Assembly (NCBI RefSeq): GCF_019063845.1
Contig: NZ_CP077683.1
Span: 124,001-188,000, forward strand
Origin: Geomonas subterranea
GTDB lineage: Bacteria; Desulfobacterota; Desulfuromonadia; Geobacterales; Geobacteraceae
DNA length: 64,000 nt
Direction of reading: 5' to 3'
Shown here one piece after another: positions 1 through 41,400 of the stretch. The stretch's first letter is position 1. Every line of letters starts with the position of its first letter. The notes beneath the pieces are model-generated. The model saw only the letters and a list, made by a program, of their open reading frames with translations. It did no database searches and was not told the DNA's origin. A program made the translations under genes and the position numbers.

Positions 1-3000
1 ATGGTGCAGGTCGCTGACAACCATGGCGGTACGGCGACGCAGCTGGTGACGCTGCAGATCACCGGTACCAACGACGCTCCTGTGATCGACGTAGTGAAGA
101 CGGTTGCCACCGGCTCGGTCTCCGAGGGTGATGATGGTTCCCTGAGGACGACGAGCGGTGTGGTCAGCTTCACTGACGTTGACCAGGGCGATCTGCACAC
201 GCTGACGGTGACGACAGGCCCGGCTCATGGCGTAGCTACCGTCGATGCCGACGGGACGTGGCACTACACGGTTACCGACAGCGGGGTCGTGGATGCGCTT
301 CCGGAGGGTCAGGTCCTCACTGACTCCTTCATGGTGCAGGTCGCTGACAACCATGGCGGTACGGCGACGCAGCTGGTGACGCTGCAGATCACCGGTACCA
401 ACGACGCTCCTGTGATCGACGTAGTGAAGACGGTTGCCACCGGCTCGGTCTCCGAGGGTGATGATGGTTCCCTGAGGACGACGAGCGGTGTGGTCAGCTT
501 CACTGACGTTGACCAGGGCGATCTGCACACGCTGACGGTGACGACAGGCCCGGCTCATGGCGTAGCTACCGTCGATGCCGACGGGACGTGGCACTACACG
601 GTTACCGACAGCGGGGTCGTGGATGCGCTTCCGGAGGGTCAGGTCCTCACTGACTCCTTCATGGTGCAGGTCGCTGACAACCATGGCGGTACGGCGACGC
701 AGCTGGTGACGCTGCAGATCACCGGTACCAACGACGCTCCTGTGATCGACGTAGTGAAGACGGTTGCCACCGGCTCGGTCTCCGAGGGTGATGATGGTTC
801 TCTGAGGACGACGAGCGGTGTGGTCAGCTTCACTGACGTTGACCAGGGCGATCTGCACACGCTGACGGTGACGACAGGCCCGGCTCATGGCGTAGCTACC
901 GTCGATGCCGACGGGACGTGGCACTACACGGTTACCGACAGCGGGGTCGTGGATGCGCTTCCGGAGGGTCAGGTCCTCACTGACTCCTTCATGGTGCAGG
1001 TCGCTGACAACCATGGCGGTACGGCGACGCAGCTGGTGACGCTGCAGATCACCGGTACCAACGACGCTCCTGTGATCGACGTAGTGAAGACGGTTGCCAC
1101 CGGCTCGGTCTCCGAGGGTGATGATGGTTCTCTGAGGACGACGAGCGGTGTGGTCAGCTTCACTGACGTTGACCAGGGCGATCTGCACACGCTGACGGTG
1201 ACGACAGGCCCGGCTCATGGCGTAGCTACCGTCGATGCCGACGGGACGTGGCACTACACGGTTACCGACAGCGGGGTCGTGGATGCGCTTCCGGAGGGTC
1301 AGGTCCTCACTGACTCCTTCATGGTGCAGGTCGCTGACAACCATGGCGGTACGGCGACGCAGCTGGTGACGCTGCAGATCACCGGTACCAACGACGCTCC
1401 TGTGATCGACGTAGTGAAGACGGTTGCCACCGGCTCGGTCTCCGAGGGTGATGATGGTTCTCTGAGGACGACGAGCGGTGTGGTCAGCTTCACTGACGTT
1501 GACCAGGGCGATCTGCACACGCTGACGGTGACGACAGGCCCGGCTCATGGCGTAGCTACCGTCGATGCCGACGGGACGTGGCACTACACGGTTACCGACA
1601 GCGGGGTCGTGGATGCGCTTCCGGAGGGTCAGGTCCTCACTGACTCCTTCATGGTGCAGGTCGCTGACAACCATGGCGGTACGGCGACGCAGCTGGTGAC
1701 GCTGCAGATCACCGGTACCAACGACGCTCCTGTGATCGACGTAGTGAAGACGGTTGCCACCGGCTCGGTCTCCGAGGGTGATGATGGTTCCCTGAGGACG
1801 ACGAGCGGTGTGGTCAGCTTCACTGACGTTGACCAGGGCGATCTGCACACGCTGACGGTGACGACAGGCCCGGCTCATGGCGTAGCTACCGTCGATGCCG
1901 ACGGGACGTGGCACTACACGGTTACCGACAGCGGGGTCGTGGATGCGCTTCCGGAGGGTCAGGTCCTCACTGACTCCTTCATGGTGCAGGTCGCTGACAA
2001 CCATGGCGGTACGGCGACGCAGCTGGTGACGCTGCAGATCACCGGTACCAACGACGCTCCTGTGATCGACGTAGTGAAGACGGTTGCCACCGGCTCGGTC
2101 TCCGAGGGTGATGATGGTTCTCTGAGGACGACGAGCGGTGTGGTCAGCTTCACTGACGTTGACCAGGGCGATCTGCACACGCTGACGGTGACGACAGGCC
2201 CGGCTCATGGCGTAGCTACCGTCGATGCCGACGGGACGTGGCACTACACGGTTACCGACAGCGGGGTCGTGGATGCGCTTCCGGAGGGTCAGGTCCTCAC
2301 TGACTCCTTCATGGTGCAGGTCGCTGACAACCATGGCGGTACGGCGACGCAGCTGGTGACGCTGCAGATCACCGGTACCAACGACGCTCCTGTGATCGAC
2401 GTAGTGAAGACGGTTGCCACCGGCTCGGTCTCCGAGGGTGATGATGGTTCTCTGAGGACGACGAGCGGTGTGGTCAGCTTCACTGACGTTGACCAGGGCG
2501 ATCTGCACACGCTGACGGTGACGACAGGCCCGGCTCATGGCGTAGCTACCGTCGATGCCGACGGGACGTGGCACTACACGGTTACCGACAGCGGGGTCGT
2601 GGATGCGCTTCCGGAGGGTCAGGTCCTCACTGACTCCTTCATGGTGCAGGTCGCTGACAACCATGGCGGTACGGCGACGCAGCTGGTGACGCTGCAGATC
2701 ACCGGTACCAACGACGCTCCTGTGATCGACGTAGTGAAGACGGTTGCCACCGGCTCGGTCTCCGAGGGTGATGATGGTTCCCTGAGGACGACGAGCGGTG
2801 TGGTCAGCTTCACTGACGTTGACCAGGGCGATCTGCACACGCTGACGGTGACGACAGGCCCGGCTCATGGCGTAGCTACCGTCGATGCCGACGGGACGTG
2901 GCACTACACGGTTACCGACAGCGGGGTCGTGGATGCGCTTCCGGAGGGTCAGGTCCTCACTGACTCCTTCATGGTGCAGGTCGCTGACAACCATGGCGGT

Positions 3001-3960
3001 ACGGCGACGCAGCTGGTGACGCTGCAGATCACCGGTACCAACGACGCTCCTGTGATCGACGTAGTGAAGACGGTTGCCACCGGCTCGGTCTCCGAGGGTG
3101 ATGATGGTTCTCTGAGGACGACGAGCGGTGTGGTCAGCTTCACTGACGTTGACCAGGGCGATCTGCACACGCTGACGGTGACGACAGGCCCGGCTCATGG
3201 CGTAGCTACCGTCGATGCCGACGGGACGTGGCACTACACGGTTACCGACAGCGGGGTCGTGGATGCGCTTCCGGAGGGTCAGGTCCTCACTGACTCCTTC
3301 ATGGTGCAGGTCGCTGACAACCATGGCGGTACGGCGACGCAGCTGGTGACGCTGCAGATCACCGGTACCAACGACGCTCCTGTGATCGACGTAGTGAAGA
3401 CGGTTGCCACCGGCTCGGTCTCCGAGGGTGATGATGGTTCTCTGAGGACGACGAGCGGTGTGGTCAGCTTCACTGACGTTGACCAGGGCGATCTGCACAC
3501 GCTGACGGTGACGACAGGCCCGGCTCATGGCGTAGCTACCGTCGATGCCGACGGGACGTGGCACTACACGGTTACCGACAGCGGGGTCGTGGATGCGCTT
3601 CCGGAGGGTCAGGTCCTCACTGACTCCTTCATGGTGCAGGTCGCTGACAACCATGGCGGTACGGCGACGCAGCTGGTGACGCTGCAGATCACCGGTACCA
3701 ACGACGCTCCTGTGATCGACGTAGTGAAGACGGTTGCCACCGGCTCGGTCTCCGAGGGTGATGATGGTTCTCTGAGGACGACGAGCGGTGTGGTCAGCTT
3801 CACTGACGTTGACCAGGGCGATCTGCACACGCTGACGGTGACGACAGGCCCGGCTCATGGCGTAGCTACCGTCGATGCCGACGGGACGTGGCACTACACG
3901 GTTACCGACAGCGGGGTCGTGGATGCGCTTCCGGAGGGTCAGGTCCTCACTGACTCCTTC
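1..3960 (+). repeat. 330-bp tandem repeat, 12 near-identical in-frame copies
   Basis: Unit boundaries fall every 330 bp (1, 331, 661 ... 3631), each encoding one VCBS domain. By eye the copies differ only at the third base of one Ser codon (position 141 and every 330 bp after it), which is C or T. Reading copies 1 to 12 the base is C,C,T,T,T,C,T,T,C,T,T,T. A partial, diverging thirteenth unit begins at 3961. The array continues off the left edge, so the true copy number is unknown. Confidence 0.97.
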
Positions 3961-5694
3961 ATGGTGCAGGTCGCTGACAACCATGGCGGTACGGCGACGC
4001 AGATGGTGACGCTTGAAATCATTGGTACGAACGATAAGCCTGAAATTGGAGGCGTCTTTACCGGAACTGTCACAGAGGACAACGGTGCAGCCGGTGTATT
4101 GCCGATCAACCTCACTGCCTCCGGCGATCTCACCATCCATGACGTGGACCAGGGACAGTCGAGCTTTATCCCTCAAGGGAGTTTTGTCGGCACCTACGGC
4201 ACCTTCACTCTCGATGCCAACGGTCACTGGACTTACACCGCTGATAACACACAAGCTGCTATCCAGCAGCTGGGGCTTAGCGGGCAGCTCACCGACAGCT
4301 TTACGGCAGTATCTTATGATGGGACGGCGAACCAGGTTGTAACAGTCACAATCAATGGCACCCCCGAATTCCCGACCGTTGATTCCCATAGCGTCTATAT
4401 GCCGGACGCTTCCGCTGAGATGACCGGGGACTACGCAAACGGATATGCACTCCAGATCAGCGCACCTACCGATGCGGCGAGCATTACGGTGGGCAATGTC
4501 CCGACTGTCGGAACTGTAGGTTACATGGATGGTGGAACTTTCCATACCGTGCACGGTGGAGACGTGATCACTTCGTCCCAACTGCAGTCTCTTCTTTACA
4601 AACCGGACGGTGTAGCTACCTTCGATCCGGCGACTGGGTTTGGTGTCACAGGCGCCGACAACGTGAACTTCACCTATACCGTGAACAACGGTTTTGGCTC
4701 ATCCGACGGTACCATCGACCTTCACACCATGCTGGGAACCGGCGGCTATATTGCTGAGGTACAAGTCGGTAGCGCATCCCATCCTTTAACTTCGGGAAGC
4801 AACCAGGCTGTTCAGTTCGCAGTCGATCCGGTGCTGGCATCAGCTACCGACTACTCACAGTCTGCGATCCAGCTCACAACAGACTTTAGGGATATGAACA
4901 CTAAAACCCTGACTTCCCAGGTTGAGACCCAGGTAAACGTCAAGCTGATTATCGACGGCCATACCTTCACGGTGGTATCCGCTACCGACCCGGCCGTGAA
5001 CTGGGAGAAAATTGCAGGGAGTGGGGGAAGTACCGACTACAATGTTGACCATGGGGCCTATTGGACCAGCGTAAATACCCATGCTCCTGCTGACGCCAAT
5101 ACTATTGAAAAGCACAGTATCTCCTTCAACGACATCTCGGATGGAACCAGTACCCTGGCTGACTACCTGACTGCTCATCCCCAGACCCCCGGTTCACTTT
5201 GGACTGTGGTGTACGACGATATCAAGTCCGGTAACGAACAGGCCCGGTTCATACATTTGTCCATAGTCCAGGATGTGGGGGCTCAGAATGCTGTGACCAT
5301 TAATGGCTCCAGTGGCAATGACGTTATGTATGGCACAACGTCCGATGGTGACATCATTAACGGTGGTGCTGGCAATGACACTATTGTCGGTCGTGAAGGC
5401 AATGATGTTCTTTCTGGTGGCACAGGCCACAACACGTTCACGGGTGGTGCAGGTGCCGACACATTCAAAGTCTCAGGTAATGACACCATAAAAGACTTCA
5501 CCGCCAACGAGGATAAGATCGTCATCGATCAACCGCATACGGATGTTCTGTTCGAGCATACGGCCGGATCCACTACGGCAAGTCTGACCGTCACTAACAA
5601 CGGAACCCAGGTGGGTACGGTGACTTTTGAAAATGTTACCGATGCGACTGCTTTATTGAATTCTTTGATCCACGATGATCCTAAGATTCACTAA
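1..5694 (+). CDS. Giant VCBS-repeat RTX adhesin, type I secreted (5' truncated)
   Basis: This is the 3' part of a very large surface or secreted protein; it is open at the window edge and the first ATG is simply the start of a repeat unit, so the true start lies upstream. Residues 1-1320 are twelve copies of a 110-residue VCBS-type unit (each with FTDVDQGDLHTLTV and GTWHYTVTD). A divergent thirteenth unit follows to about residue 1460, then a unique region. Residues about 1767-1845 hold RTX-like glycine/aspartate nonapeptides (GGAGNDTIV, GREGNDVLS, GGAGADTFK) that bind calcium in this family and sit next to the C-terminal type I secretion signal. VCBS proteins are typically adhesins or biofilm proteins exported by an ABC/MFP/TolC system; no such exporter is in this window. 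A strong terminator follows, so it is the last gene of its transcript. Confidence 0.9.
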   Translation: MVQVADNHGGTATQLVTLQITGTNDAPVIDVVKTVATGSVSEGDDGSLRTTSGVVSFTDVDQGDLHTLTVTTGPAHGVATVDADGTWHYTVTDSGVVDALPEGQVLTDSFMVQVADNHGGTATQLVTLQITGTNDAPVIDVVKTVATGSVSEGDDGSLRTTSGVVSFTDVDQGDLHTLTVTTGPAHGVATVDADGTWHYTVTDSGVVDALPEGQVLTDSFMVQVADNHGGTATQLVTLQITGTNDAPVIDVVKTVATGSVSEGDDGSLRTTSGVVSFTDVDQGDLHTLTVTTGPAHGVATVDADGTWHYTVTDSGVVDALPEGQVLTDSFMVQVADNHGGTATQLVTLQITGTNDAPVIDVVKTVATGSVSEGDDGSLRTTSGVVSFTDVDQGDLHTLTVTTGPAHGVATVDADGTWHYTVTDSGVVDALPEGQVLTDSFMVQVADNHGGTATQLVTLQITGTNDAPVIDVVKTVATGSVSEGDDGSLRTTSGVVSFTDVDQGDLHTLTVTTGPAHGVATVDADGTWHYTVTDSGVVDALPEGQVLTDSFMVQVADNHGGTATQLVTLQITGTNDAPVIDVVKTVATGSVSEGDDGSLRTTSGVVSFTDVDQGDLHTLTVTTGPAHGVATVDADGTWHYTVTDSGVVDALPEGQVLTDSFMVQVADNHGGTATQLVTLQITGTNDAPVIDVVKTVATGSVSEGDDGSLRTTSGVVSFTDVDQGDLHTLTVTTGPAHGVATVDADGTWHYTVTDSGVVDALPEGQVLTDSFMVQVADNHGGTATQLVTLQITGTNDAPVIDVVKTVATGSVSEGDDGSLRTTSGVVSFTDVDQGDLHTLTVTTGPAHGVATVDADGTWHYTVTDSGVVDALPEGQVLTDSFMVQVADNHGGTATQLVTLQITGTNDAPVIDVVKTVATGSVSEGDDGSLRTTSGVVSFTDVDQGDLHTLTVTTGPAHGVATVDADGTWHYTVTDSGVVDALPEGQVLTDSFMVQVADNHGGTATQLVTLQITGTNDAPVIDVVKTVATGSVSEGDDGSLRTTSGVVSFTDVDQGDLHTLTVTTGPAHGVATVDADGTWHYTVTDSGVVDALPEGQVLTDSFMVQVADNHGGTATQLVTLQITGTNDAPVIDVVKTVATGSVSEGDDGSLRTTSGVVSFTDVDQGDLHTLTVTTGPAHGVATVDADGTWHYTVTDSGVVDALPEGQVLTDSFMVQVADNHGGTATQLVTLQITGTNDAPVIDVVKTVATGSVSEGDDGSLRTTSGVVSFTDVDQGDLHTLTVTTGPAHGVATVDADGTWHYTVTDSGVVDALPEGQVLTDSFMVQVADNHGGTATQMVTLEIIGTNDKPEIGGVFTGTVTEDNGAAGVLPINLTASGDLTIHDVDQGQSSFIPQGSFVGTYGTFTLDANGHWTYTADNTQAAIQQLGLSGQLTDSFTAVSYDGTANQVVTVTINGTPEFPTVDSHSVYMPDASAEMTGDYANGYALQISAPTDAASITVGNVPTVGTVGYMDGGTFHTVHGGDVITSSQLQSLLYKPDGVATFDPATGFGVTGADNVNFTYTVNNGFGSSDGTIDLHTMLGTGGYIAEVQVGSASHPLTSGSNQAVQFAVDPVLASATDYSQSAIQLTTDFRDMNTKTLTSQVETQVNVKLIIDGHTFTVVSATDPAVNWEKIAGSGGSTDYNVDHGAYWTSVNTHAPADANTIEKHSISFNDISDGTSTLADYLTAHPQTPGSLWTVVYDDIKSGNEQARFIHLSIVQDVGAQNAVTINGSSGNDVMYGTTSDGDIINGGAGNDTIVGREGNDVLSGGTGHNTFTGGAGADTFKVSGNDTIKDFTANEDKIVIDQPHTDVLFEHTAGSTTASLTVTNNGTQVGTVTFENVTDATALLNSLIHDDPKIH

Positions 5695-33507: not shown

Positions 33508-33541
33508 GCGCCAGGTCCGGGCAGACCTGGCGCCTTTTTTT
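33508..33541 (+). terminator. Intrinsic terminator of hcp
   Basis: A 10-bp perfect stem (GCGCCAGGTC 33508-33517 with GACCTGGCGC 33524-33533), one C, then seven T residues. Confidence 0.95.
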
Positions 33542-33636: not shown

Positions 33637-34140
33637 TTGAATTTAGGAAGCGTCCCTTACAATTCGTGCGGGGTCGCGGCAAATTCGGCACGCCCCGCTT
33701 TTACTGCTCCCGCCTCGCATTTAAAATCAGTAAGGCCTTCTTTAAAATAAGTAAGACCCTTTTTAAATTAACTAAGACCCCTGTTAAAAAAAAGAAGGTC
33801 ATAGTTAATTTAAACAAGGTCGTGTTTAAATTACTCGGAGGGCTCATTAATTTAAAGTGCCCTGTAGCGTTTATCGAACGACCCTGTTGCAGGTAAAAAA
33901 GGGGGGCGTTAGAAAGCAACAAGGGTGTCTTCCGTAAAAAGGAGCACTGCTGCAAAATAAACCGGGTGTGCGAAACCTTAAATACGCCCCTCATCAGTTG
34001 ATGAGGCATCTGCTTTGCATTACGGCAGCCCATATTTATTTTAAATGCACCCTTATATTAGAAAAAGCGACCCTGCTTTATTTTAAAATGGACCTTACAT
34101 TAGAAAAAGCAGCCCTATTTTAAAATAACTGCAAGCGCAG
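33637..34140. repeat. Degenerate tandem array with exact 21-bp period, about 24 units
   Basis: Starting at 33721, TTAA-type starts recur at 33742, 33763, 33784, 33805, 33826 and 33847, then with more decay at 34036, 34078, 34120; all intervals are multiples of 21. Each unit is an A/T-rich half (TTAAAATAA-like) and a G/C-richer half usually ending in CCCT. Units at 34057 and 34099 share ATTAGAAAAAGC and CCCT, and with 34036 and 34078 form a duplicated 42-bp dimer. Units 33637-33720 fit weakly. Short open frames on both strands encode heptads (plus: FKISKAF, FKISKTL, FKLTKTP; minus: VLLILKK, ALLILNA) but stop codons interrupt them, and there is no ribosome-binding site, so I treat it as non-coding or decayed. 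Confidence 0.85.
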
Positions 34141-39602: not shown

Positions 39603-39690
39603 CATAAAGGGGACAGGCACCTGCGGAGCCAGTCCCCTTTGTTTAGGCGTAAAGCGGACAGGCACCTGCGGAGCCAGTCCCCTTTGTTTA
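39603..39690. repeat. Two 45-bp direct repeats with internal hairpins (convergent gene end)
   Basis: Units at 39603-39647 and 39648-39690 share the CAGGCACCTGCGGAGCCAGT core. In the first, AAAGGGGAC pairs with GTCCCCTTT, giving a 9-bp stem followed by T-rich sequence, so it could terminate transcription from both sides. The second unit overlaps the stop codon of the ParA-like gene. A third copy is at 22473. Confidence 0.8.
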
Positions 39691-41157: not shown

Positions 41158-41400
41158 TTCCCCGCCCCCGGAGGGGGAGGGGAAGGGAGGGGGGAAGCCG
41201 GTTTCACCCTGTCGTTGCACCCTGTCGTTGCACCCTGTCGTTGCACCCTGTCCTGCCGCAGCTGGGCTTTTCTCCCTCGCCCTCCGGGAGAGGGTGGCCG
41301 AAGGCCGGGTGAGGGCGATGGCGGCGGCATGATTTTGCCATCAGGCGGGGCCCTCACCCCTGCCCCTCTCCCGGAGGGCGAGGGGAGTATTACGATGGGC
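41158..41400. repeat. Cluster of GC-rich palindromes and a 13-bp tandem repeat
   Basis: This gap (41062-41459, 398 bp) holds a palindrome at 41160-41192, a 13-bp unit CACCCTGTCGTTG repeated at 41205, 41218 and 41231 with a partial fourth at 41244, and a long inverted pair at 41268-41310 and 41350-41392 (CCCTCGCCCTCCGGGAGAGG and its complement). No gene is visible. It precedes xseA. Confidence 0.75.

What the first reader, a model, noticed from the sequence alone, without database searches (positions are those of the whole stretch)
33637..34140. Array of about 24 degenerate repeats with an exact 21-bp period between hcp and norB
Units keep register at exactly 21 bp for about 500 bp although the sequence has decayed strongly. 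Every unit alternates an A/T-rich half (TTAAAATAA-like) with a G/C-richer half ending in CCCT. A 42-bp dimer has been duplicated at the right end (34036-34077 and 34078-34119). 21 bp is two helical turns, so the A/T tracts would face the same side of the helix, suggesting phased bending, nucleoid-protein binding or an ordered row of regulator sites between two convergent NO-stress genes. An alternative is a decayed heptad-repeat coding sequence, since both strands give hydrophobic/lysine heptads in part. I know of no described element like it.
Basis: seen in the sequence. Interest (0 to 1): 0.75.

Follow-up and report, generated by a model that had tools for sequence, protein, structure and literature searches.

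The report
Orphan 21-bp array from gene–array family
The odd repeat between two genes is a real, apparently non-coding row of sites spaced exactly two DNA turns apart, and it belongs to a wider class of such rows that usually sit beside one poorly known protein family in two distant bacterial phyla, which points to an unrecognised protein-plus-DNA-array system whose job is still unknown.

Summary
The 21-bp array is real: identity at lag 21 is 0.431 against 0.261±0.022 in 2000 dinucleotide shuffles. It is one copy of a diverged ~420-480 bp element of Geomonas with fixed anatomy (left arm, CTCATTAAT landmark, middle, right arm), found at several unrelated loci. Units keep register across the diverged middle: by a mechanical rule, 24 of 26 loci keep it within -3..+1 bp of a multiple of 21 and all 26 within -4..+2, while the gap varies from 4 to 14 units.

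The larger result: intergenic arrays of the same period but unrelated sequence accompany one protein family (~125 aa helical, or ~220 aa with an fn3-like tail). 44 of 60 member ORFs have a 20-22 or 40-42 bp array in the 3' kilobase, 0 in the 5'; 8 of 443 other genes do. In three Bacteroidota genomes and one unclassified genome, first picked by a 21-bp DNA pattern, the array lies upstream in 15 of 19. The window copy has no such gene beside it, but sister arrays at another locus do.

Best explanation: a one-face binding array for this protein family, here an orphan site. Binding is inferred, not shown. Local NO regulation, coding and intrinsic bending are not supported.

The parts
33721..34140 (+). 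whole 21-bp-register array (about 20 units), non-coding, intergenic
33721..33842 (+). left arm: A/T-rich units TTTAAAnTAAAnAnG(G/A)(T/C)CnTG, dyad symmetric, core GGTC or GACC
   Evidence: model R1 built from 15 copies
33843..33851 (+). landmark CTCATTAAT ending the left arm; CATTA kept in most of the 15 aligned copies (four of its five columns 14 or 15 of 15)
33852..34017 (+). middle, strongly diverged; length differs between copies by about whole 21-bp units; holds CCTCATCAGTTGATGAGG (33988-34005), a near-palindrome
34018..34140 (+). right arm: 42-bp dimer TTTATTTTAAA...ACCCTTACATTAGAAAAAGCA, two copies
   Evidence: model R2 built from 15 copies

Best explanation
The element is a DNA-level array of about 20 protein sites placed every two helical turns, so that all face one side of the helix. 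It belongs to a class of gene-plus-array cassettes: a small helical protein (about 125 aa with a basic tail, or about 220 aa with a fibronectin-III-like tail) whose gene has a 21-bp-register array beside it (mostly downstream in Geomonas, upstream in the Bacteroidota genomes seen). I propose that the family protein oligomerises on its array as a one-face filament, and that the window copy is an orphan (trans) site for the paralogue encoded beside the sister array at G000:C1:4.344 Mb. Shown here: the array, its homologues, the register conservation and the gene-array linkage. Inferred: that the protein binds the array, that it forms a filament, that orphan arrays are bound in trans, and any cellular role (nucleoid organisation, insulation or a partition-like task).
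For: Register is kept across the diverged middle: 260 of 270 unit pairs more than 100 bp apart are within -3..+1 of a multiple of 21 and all 270 within -4..+2; across the largest gap of each element, 24 of 26 and 26 of 26. Of 16 gaps of 10 bp or more inside pairwise alignments of eight locus pairs, 13 are within 2 bp of a multiple of 21 (exceptions 25, 38, 11). Core is GGTC (41) or GACC (31) with the palindromic intermediates GGCC (5) and GATC (3) rare among 144 units, though GATC is over-represented in the sampled genome (obs/exp 1.67). Linkage: 44 of 60 family ORFs have a 20-22 or 40-42 bp array in the 3' kb and 0 of 60 in the 5' kb; 43 of 55 after dropping 3 giant ORFs and 2 duplicates; 19 of 600 random 1-kb pieces have any array. 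A further 20 members of G000 and G003: 13 in the 3' kb, 3 in the 5' kb, 4 none; 8 of 443 other genes in the sampled stretches have such an array 3'. In the window genome 12 of the 13 members listed have an array within 1 kb, counting the diverged one at 4.344 Mb that only the homology models detect. All 4 family genes met in 102 sampled 20-kb stretches sit beside a 21-bp array. In another phylum 15 of 19 members have a 21, 41 or 42 bp array in the 5' kb. Unit similarity rises with protein identity (0.74 at 80% or more, 0.56 at 60-80%, 0.47 below 40%; null 0.47).
Against: No binding data. The window array itself has no family gene beside it or elsewhere in the 64-kb window, and orphan arrays without the gene exist (locus b beside cmoB, L189). 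21-bp non-coding arrays also occur in genomes where the family profile finds nothing (Thermoanaerobaculia, Rhodospirillales). Some members lack a detectable array (16 of 60, 4 of 20, 4 of 19). Units of fairly close orthologues (77-79% protein identity, L318 against L315 and L317) can be unrelated, which strains fixed sequence recognition. Dyad symmetry is weak across the class (mean 5.8 of 10 pairs against 5.2 for random 21-mers). Unit-protein correlation can come from shared descent alone. The predicted fold of the short protein has no significant match (best 2gsc, E 1.5). The Bacteroidota genomes were pre-selected for containing a 21-bp array.
Confidence: 0.5

Rival explanations
1. By-product: tandem arrays produced by slippage or unequal exchange, favoured at about two helical turns, accumulate in permissive intergenic gaps and decay; the link to the gene family is hitch-hiking with a repeat-prone cassette.
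For: Near-perfect arrays (identity 0.95-1.0) beside some members look recently expanded, and unit sequence turns over between orthologues. 10, 15 and 16 bp non-coding arrays also exist in the same genome. An IS-like sequence interrupts the element at contig ends in G012 (read by eye).
Against: Strongly diverged copies still keep register to about 1 bp; at locus c (G000c/G013c) the element aligns while the upstream intergenic flank does not; array position relative to the gene is consistent within each group.
Confidence: 0.25
2. RNA-level element: the array is transcribed (for example as a 3' extension of the neighbouring gene) and acts as a structured RNA or protein sponge.
For: Both strands of the window array and an array beside a family gene fold better than shuffles (z -4.39, -3.33, -4.30); arrays lie 3' of the gene in Geomonas.
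Against: Good folding on both strands is what dyad-symmetric units give without any RNA function. Arrays are upstream in the Bacteroidota genomes. A fixed period near two DNA turns is not needed by RNA. No Rfam family reaches its gathering score.
Confidence: 0.14
3. Decayed heptad-repeat coding sequence.
For: One frame per strand is often open across the left arm, and in many copies the + frame ends with His-stop at the landmark.
Against: Any 21-bp repeat has about 0.7 chance per frame of being open (arithmetic). Near-invariant bases are at third codon positions (C in 70 of 75 units, G in 68 of 75) while variable R and Y are at positions 1 and 2. Copies carry stops and change frame between arms: spacing mod 3 is 2, 0, 1 in 12, 8, 2 of the 22 elements tabulated. 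Gene-linked arrays with 20, 22, 40, 41 and 43 bp periods exist.
Confidence: 0.03
4. Local regulator sites controlling the two NO-stress genes.
For: Position between two genes named hcp and norB.
Against: The genes converge, so the array lies at their 3' ends; homologues sit beside cmoB-like, ligA-like, uvrD-like, larA-like and other genes (names by eye); in G002 the same gap holds only a three-unit remnant.
Confidence: 0.03
5. Intrinsically curved DNA made by phased A-tracts.
For: A/T-rich halves recur every two turns; 4 of 28 arrays exceed z = 2 in a wedge model, best z 3.72.
Against: TTTAAA-type blocks with a TpA step are recalled to be straight. Many gene-linked arrays are G/C-rich.
Confidence: 0.05

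Closest known systems
Multicopy nucleotide sequences of Geobacter bemidjiensis and G. metallireducens (PMC2996986, PMC2700814; passages seen by 'find'; supplements not read)
   Same: Intergenic direct repeats of 6-42 nt and palindromic families dispersed in a Geobacteraceae genome.
   Different: The passages seen name no 21-bp rule, no phase conservation and no linked protein family; whether these arrays are among the listed families could not be checked.
Plasmid partition loci (centromere-like repeat array beside the gene of its binding protein; recalled)
   Same: Layout: a DNA-binding candidate gene beside an array of regularly spaced sites, upstream or downstream.
   Different: No motor ATPase gene looked for or seen; many cassettes with different unit sequences per chromosome; binding not shown.
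REP/RAYT and similar palindromic repeat families (listed; family features recalled)
   Same: Non-coding palindromic repeats associated with one gene family.
   Different: No transposase family matched; period-locked arrays rather than dispersed single palindromes.
Iterons of replication origins (recalled)
   Same: Repeats spaced about two helical turns on one face of the helix.
   Different: Units occur in both orientations; no replication initiator gene seen beside the window array.
CRISPR arrays (recalled)
   Same: Regular array beside a gene.
   Different: No spacers: units follow each other directly; no PADLOC match for five family proteins.

Membership tests
21-bp gene-array class described here | array with period 20-22 bp or its double in a non-coding gap | tested here: met
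21-bp gene-array class described here | homology to an array that lies beside a family gene | tested here: met
   models R1 and R2 match both the window and the array beside the family gene at G000:C1:4.344 Mb (E 2e-20 and 5e-20)
21-bp gene-array class described here | family gene directly beside this copy | tested here: not met
   no match of profiles A3, A4, A5 or the seed HMM in the window ORFs at E <= 0.1; hence 'orphan'
Plasmid partition locus | array bound by the adjacent gene product | not testable with these tools
   no binding assay
Plasmid partition locus | partner motor ATPase | not tested
   neighbours were listed but no search for a motor gene was made
CRISPR array | repeats separated by unique spacers | tested here: not met
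   21-bp units abut
Structured RNA family (Rfam) | match above gathering score | tested here: not met
   best match 27.9 bits against a gathering score of 94
Geobacter multicopy nucleotide sequences | identity with one of the listed families | not testable with these tools
   supplementary tables and figures not held; only main-text passages seen
Heptad-repeat protein gene | conserved reading frame with constraint at codon positions 1 and 2 | tested here: not met

The most novel reading that the evidence does not exclude
A previously unrecognised two-part genetic system, present in at least two phyla: a small helical or helical-fn3 protein and a neighbouring DNA array whose unit sequence is free to change but whose period is fixed near two helical turns. 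Several orthogonal cassettes coexist in one chromosome, and orphan arrays such as the window copy extend the network to distant loci.
Probability: 0.5. Interest if true: 0.9.

Novelty: categorically new. Interest (0 to 1): 0.75.

Why it matters
If the linkage holds, a protein family of unknown function gains a physical partner that can be tested at the bench: a DNA array whose spacing, not its sequence, is what evolution keeps. That would be an unusual mode of recognition in bacteria. It may explain part of the unexplained multicopy intergenic repeats of Geobacteraceae and similar arrays in Bacteroidota, and could reveal a chromosome-organising or partition-like system.

Tried and rejected
Rejected or weak: NO-gene regulation (varied neighbours); coding heptads; intrinsic bending; a single long hairpin (unit orientation is irregular: the left arm of one copy, G010d, has only GGTC cores); Rfam; plasmid carriage by DNA and by protein (two queries without match, one with four weak matches in the fn3 part); phage carriage (none for one query, two weak partial matches for the other); PADLOC, NCBIfam (no match near its cut-off), PHROGs (only phage tail families, with tail-domain matches in two of the three); fold search of the short protein (nothing significant; model from 3 sequences, best of five models pLDDT 80.5, the others 43.9-60.6).

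Counting notes. The 22-element spacing table was typed by hand, and in two loci an off-phase hit was passed over (G003b at 328, G004_11 at 332), while G012d and G009_12, which fit, were left out; one search repeats the test mechanically and is the number to use. Of 39 loci, 28 have a pair more than 100 bp apart and 26 a gap over 80 bp. The 60 ORFs come from the best 30 loci of each, not from every match listed; 20 more were taken. In one search my coding filter wrongly marked L198, L201 and L189 as coding; searches show slips or frame changes in L198 and L201, and one search shows L189. Samples of two other genera (G067, G023; 400 kb each) gave no non-coding 21-bp array, and the member at G023:C1:802 kb has none beside it. 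Outside the genus the right-arm model reached only E 0.004.

Not followed up: a wider test in Chitinophagaceae. One search found members at E <= 0.001 in 15 of 79 genomes, but their flanks could not be fetched, so the cross-phylum claim rests on 19 ORFs from four genomes.

Full report
Observation. The periodicity is real: identity at lag 21 is 0.431 over window 33700-34140, against 0.261 (sd 0.022, maximum 0.336) in 2000 dinucleotide shuffles, and the best of lags 10-60 in any shuffle is 0.358. A/T content peaks at 21.0 bp and not at 10.5 bp. The secure array is about 33721-34140. TRF sees only two short pieces.

Relatives. blastn of the element finds matches at E <= 0.01 in 11 of 58 genomes, all of them in the window's genus (11 of 19 genomes of the genus). 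The genus is Geomonas: contigs named Geomonas diazotrophica, anaerohicana, propionica and paludis have the same lengths as contigs of G013, G002, G010 and G005. The window genome has two further copies, at 3.771 and 4.344 Mb. Copies share one layout: a left arm of five to six units, a CTCATTAA landmark, a diverged middle and a right arm with a 42-bp dimer. Sequence-only models of the two arms recover these copies; outside the genus the right-arm model reaches only E 0.004.

Loci. Eight genomes carry a copy between the same two gene groups (cmoB-like on one side), and at least seven carry one 3' of a 126-aa gene later found to belong to the protein family. Others lie between ligA-like and uvrD-like genes. 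In the hcp-norB gap G000 has the full element, G012 has both halves on two contigs ending beside an IS-like sequence, and G002 has a three-unit remnant. The gene names other than hcp and norB are my reading of the sequences.

DNA-level constraint. The unit is close to a palindrome, A-n-G-R-Y-C-n-T with TTAAnnTAA between cores. The core is GGTC (41) or GACC (31); GGCC (5) and GATC (3) are rare among 144 units, although GATC is over-represented in the sampled genome. In both open heptad frames the near-invariant G and C are third codon positions (68 and 70 of 75 units) and the variable R and Y are positions 1 and 2, the opposite of coding constraint. Register is conserved: of 270 unit pairs more than 100 bp apart in 28 loci, 260 are within -3..+1 bp of a multiple of 21 and all are within -4..+2; across the largest gap of each of 26 loci, which ranges from 82 to 293 bp, 24 are within -3..+1 and 26 within -4..+2 (no phase was used in picking hits). 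In eight pairwise alignments 13 of 16 gaps of at least 10 bp are within 2 bp of a multiple of 21. At locus c (G000c/G013c) the element still aligns where the upstream intergenic flank does not; at locus b the arms change faster than the neighbouring gene.

A wider class. A spaced sample of the window genome (904 kb with the window) holds four more 21-bp arrays with unrelated units (L182, L189, L198, L201); other long 21-bp signals there are coiled-coil genes. Non-coding arrays of 10, 15 and 16 bp also occur. G014, of the same genus, has a 21-bp array of roughly 33 units with stops in all six frames (L275). Samples of two other genera have none.

The protein family. Genes beside these unrelated arrays proved to be members of one family. 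An HMM seeded on some of them found members beside arrays not used in the seed (L275, L182, L062, L066, L095). All four members met in 102 sampled 20-kb stretches sit beside a 21-bp array. Long members match Pfam fn3 in their tail in five of the seven such proteins scanned, two of them above the curated cut-off; short members match no Pfam or NCBIfam family convincingly. In the order, the short profile matches 22 of 141 genomes and the long one 25 of 141, including all 19 of the genus.

Linkage test. Of 60 member ORFs taken from the best loci of those searches, 44 have an array in the 3' kilobase (periods 21 in 36, 20 in 2, 42 in 2, 41 in 2, 22 and 40 in one each) and none of 60 has one in the 5' kilobase at the same threshold; 19 of 600 random 1-kb pieces have an array of any period. 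Three of the 60 are giant ORFs and two are duplicates; without them it is 43 of 55. Of 20 further members from two complete genomes, 13 have it 3', 3 have it 5' and 4 have none; 8 of 443 other genes have a 20-22 or 40-42 bp array 3'. In the window genome 12 of 13 listed members have an array within 1 kb; one of these, at 4.344 Mb, is below the autocorrelation threshold and is counted through models R1 and R2.

Another phylum. A blind pattern scan for three 21-bp units in 84,980 genomes returned 47 stretches, many of them coding repeats. Of 25 searchable genomes behind the non-Geomonas hits, four carry short members of the family: a Chitinophagales, a Chitinophagaceae and a Saprospiraceae genome (Bacteroidota) and one unclassified genome. 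Of 19 member ORFs there, 15 have a 21, 41 or 42 bp array in the 5' kilobase, and none has one of that period in the 3' kilobase. This sample is biased, since each genome was chosen for holding at least one such array. Against the reading, Thermoanaerobaculia, Treponema and Rhodospirillales genomes with 21-bp arrays gave no family match.

Mechanism. Because period is kept and sequence is not, and because 20, 22, 41 and 43 bp variants occur, the shared constraint looks like helical phase on double-stranded DNA. A protein that binds every two turns and oligomerises along one face fits best, and the linked family is the natural candidate; unit similarity follows protein similarity, though shared descent alone could give this. 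The window copy would then be an orphan site. Binding, filament formation and role are inference. Intrinsic bending is not general. RNA folding is better than shuffles on both strands, as palindromic units would give.

Novelty. The closest published observation found is the set of intergenic direct repeats of 6-42 nt in G. bemidjiensis (PMC2996986, passages only). Searches for a link between fn3 proteins and arrays found nothing relevant, in a library that lacks most subscription journals. I rate the gene-array system as categorically new with these limits in mind; the window array alone would be a new member of a known kind.

Noticed in passing
window 1-4034: Near-perfect 330-bp tandem repeat (12.2 copies, 99% matches) running off the window start; looks like a large repetitive surface protein gene.
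   Followed up: no
window 33509-33541: Hairpin followed by a T run after hcp (GCGCCAGGTC...GACCTGGCGCC then T run), nearly identical in G012 and G002; probably the hcp terminator, outside the array.
   Followed up: no
window 41201-41252 and 39605-39690: Other tandem repeats: 13-bp GTTGCACCCTGTC x4 and a 45-bp unit x1.9.
   Followed up: no
G012:C6 end (L012) and G012:C15 end (L002): The hcp-norB element is split between two contig ends; one ends in an IS-like orf start, suggesting an insertion inside the array.
   Followed up: partly
L154, L155, L166, L168, L137: In other phyla two unrelated 21-bp arrays often lie side by side, in Treponema, Planctomycetaceae and Rhodospirillales MAGs; some may be coding.
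   Followed up: partly
L163 1815-2133; L140, L153, L167, L174: Thermoanaerobaculia MAGs carry many 21-bp palindromic arrays, some with 1-nt slips, without a match to the protein family.
   Followed up: partly
L172 4596-4758: Saprospiraceae array whose units flip orientation in register, like GGTC/GACC in the window.
   Followed up: no
G015:C4 (L129) 2971-3181: Unit hits spaced exactly 41 bp apart, a variant period in the same genus.
   Followed up: no
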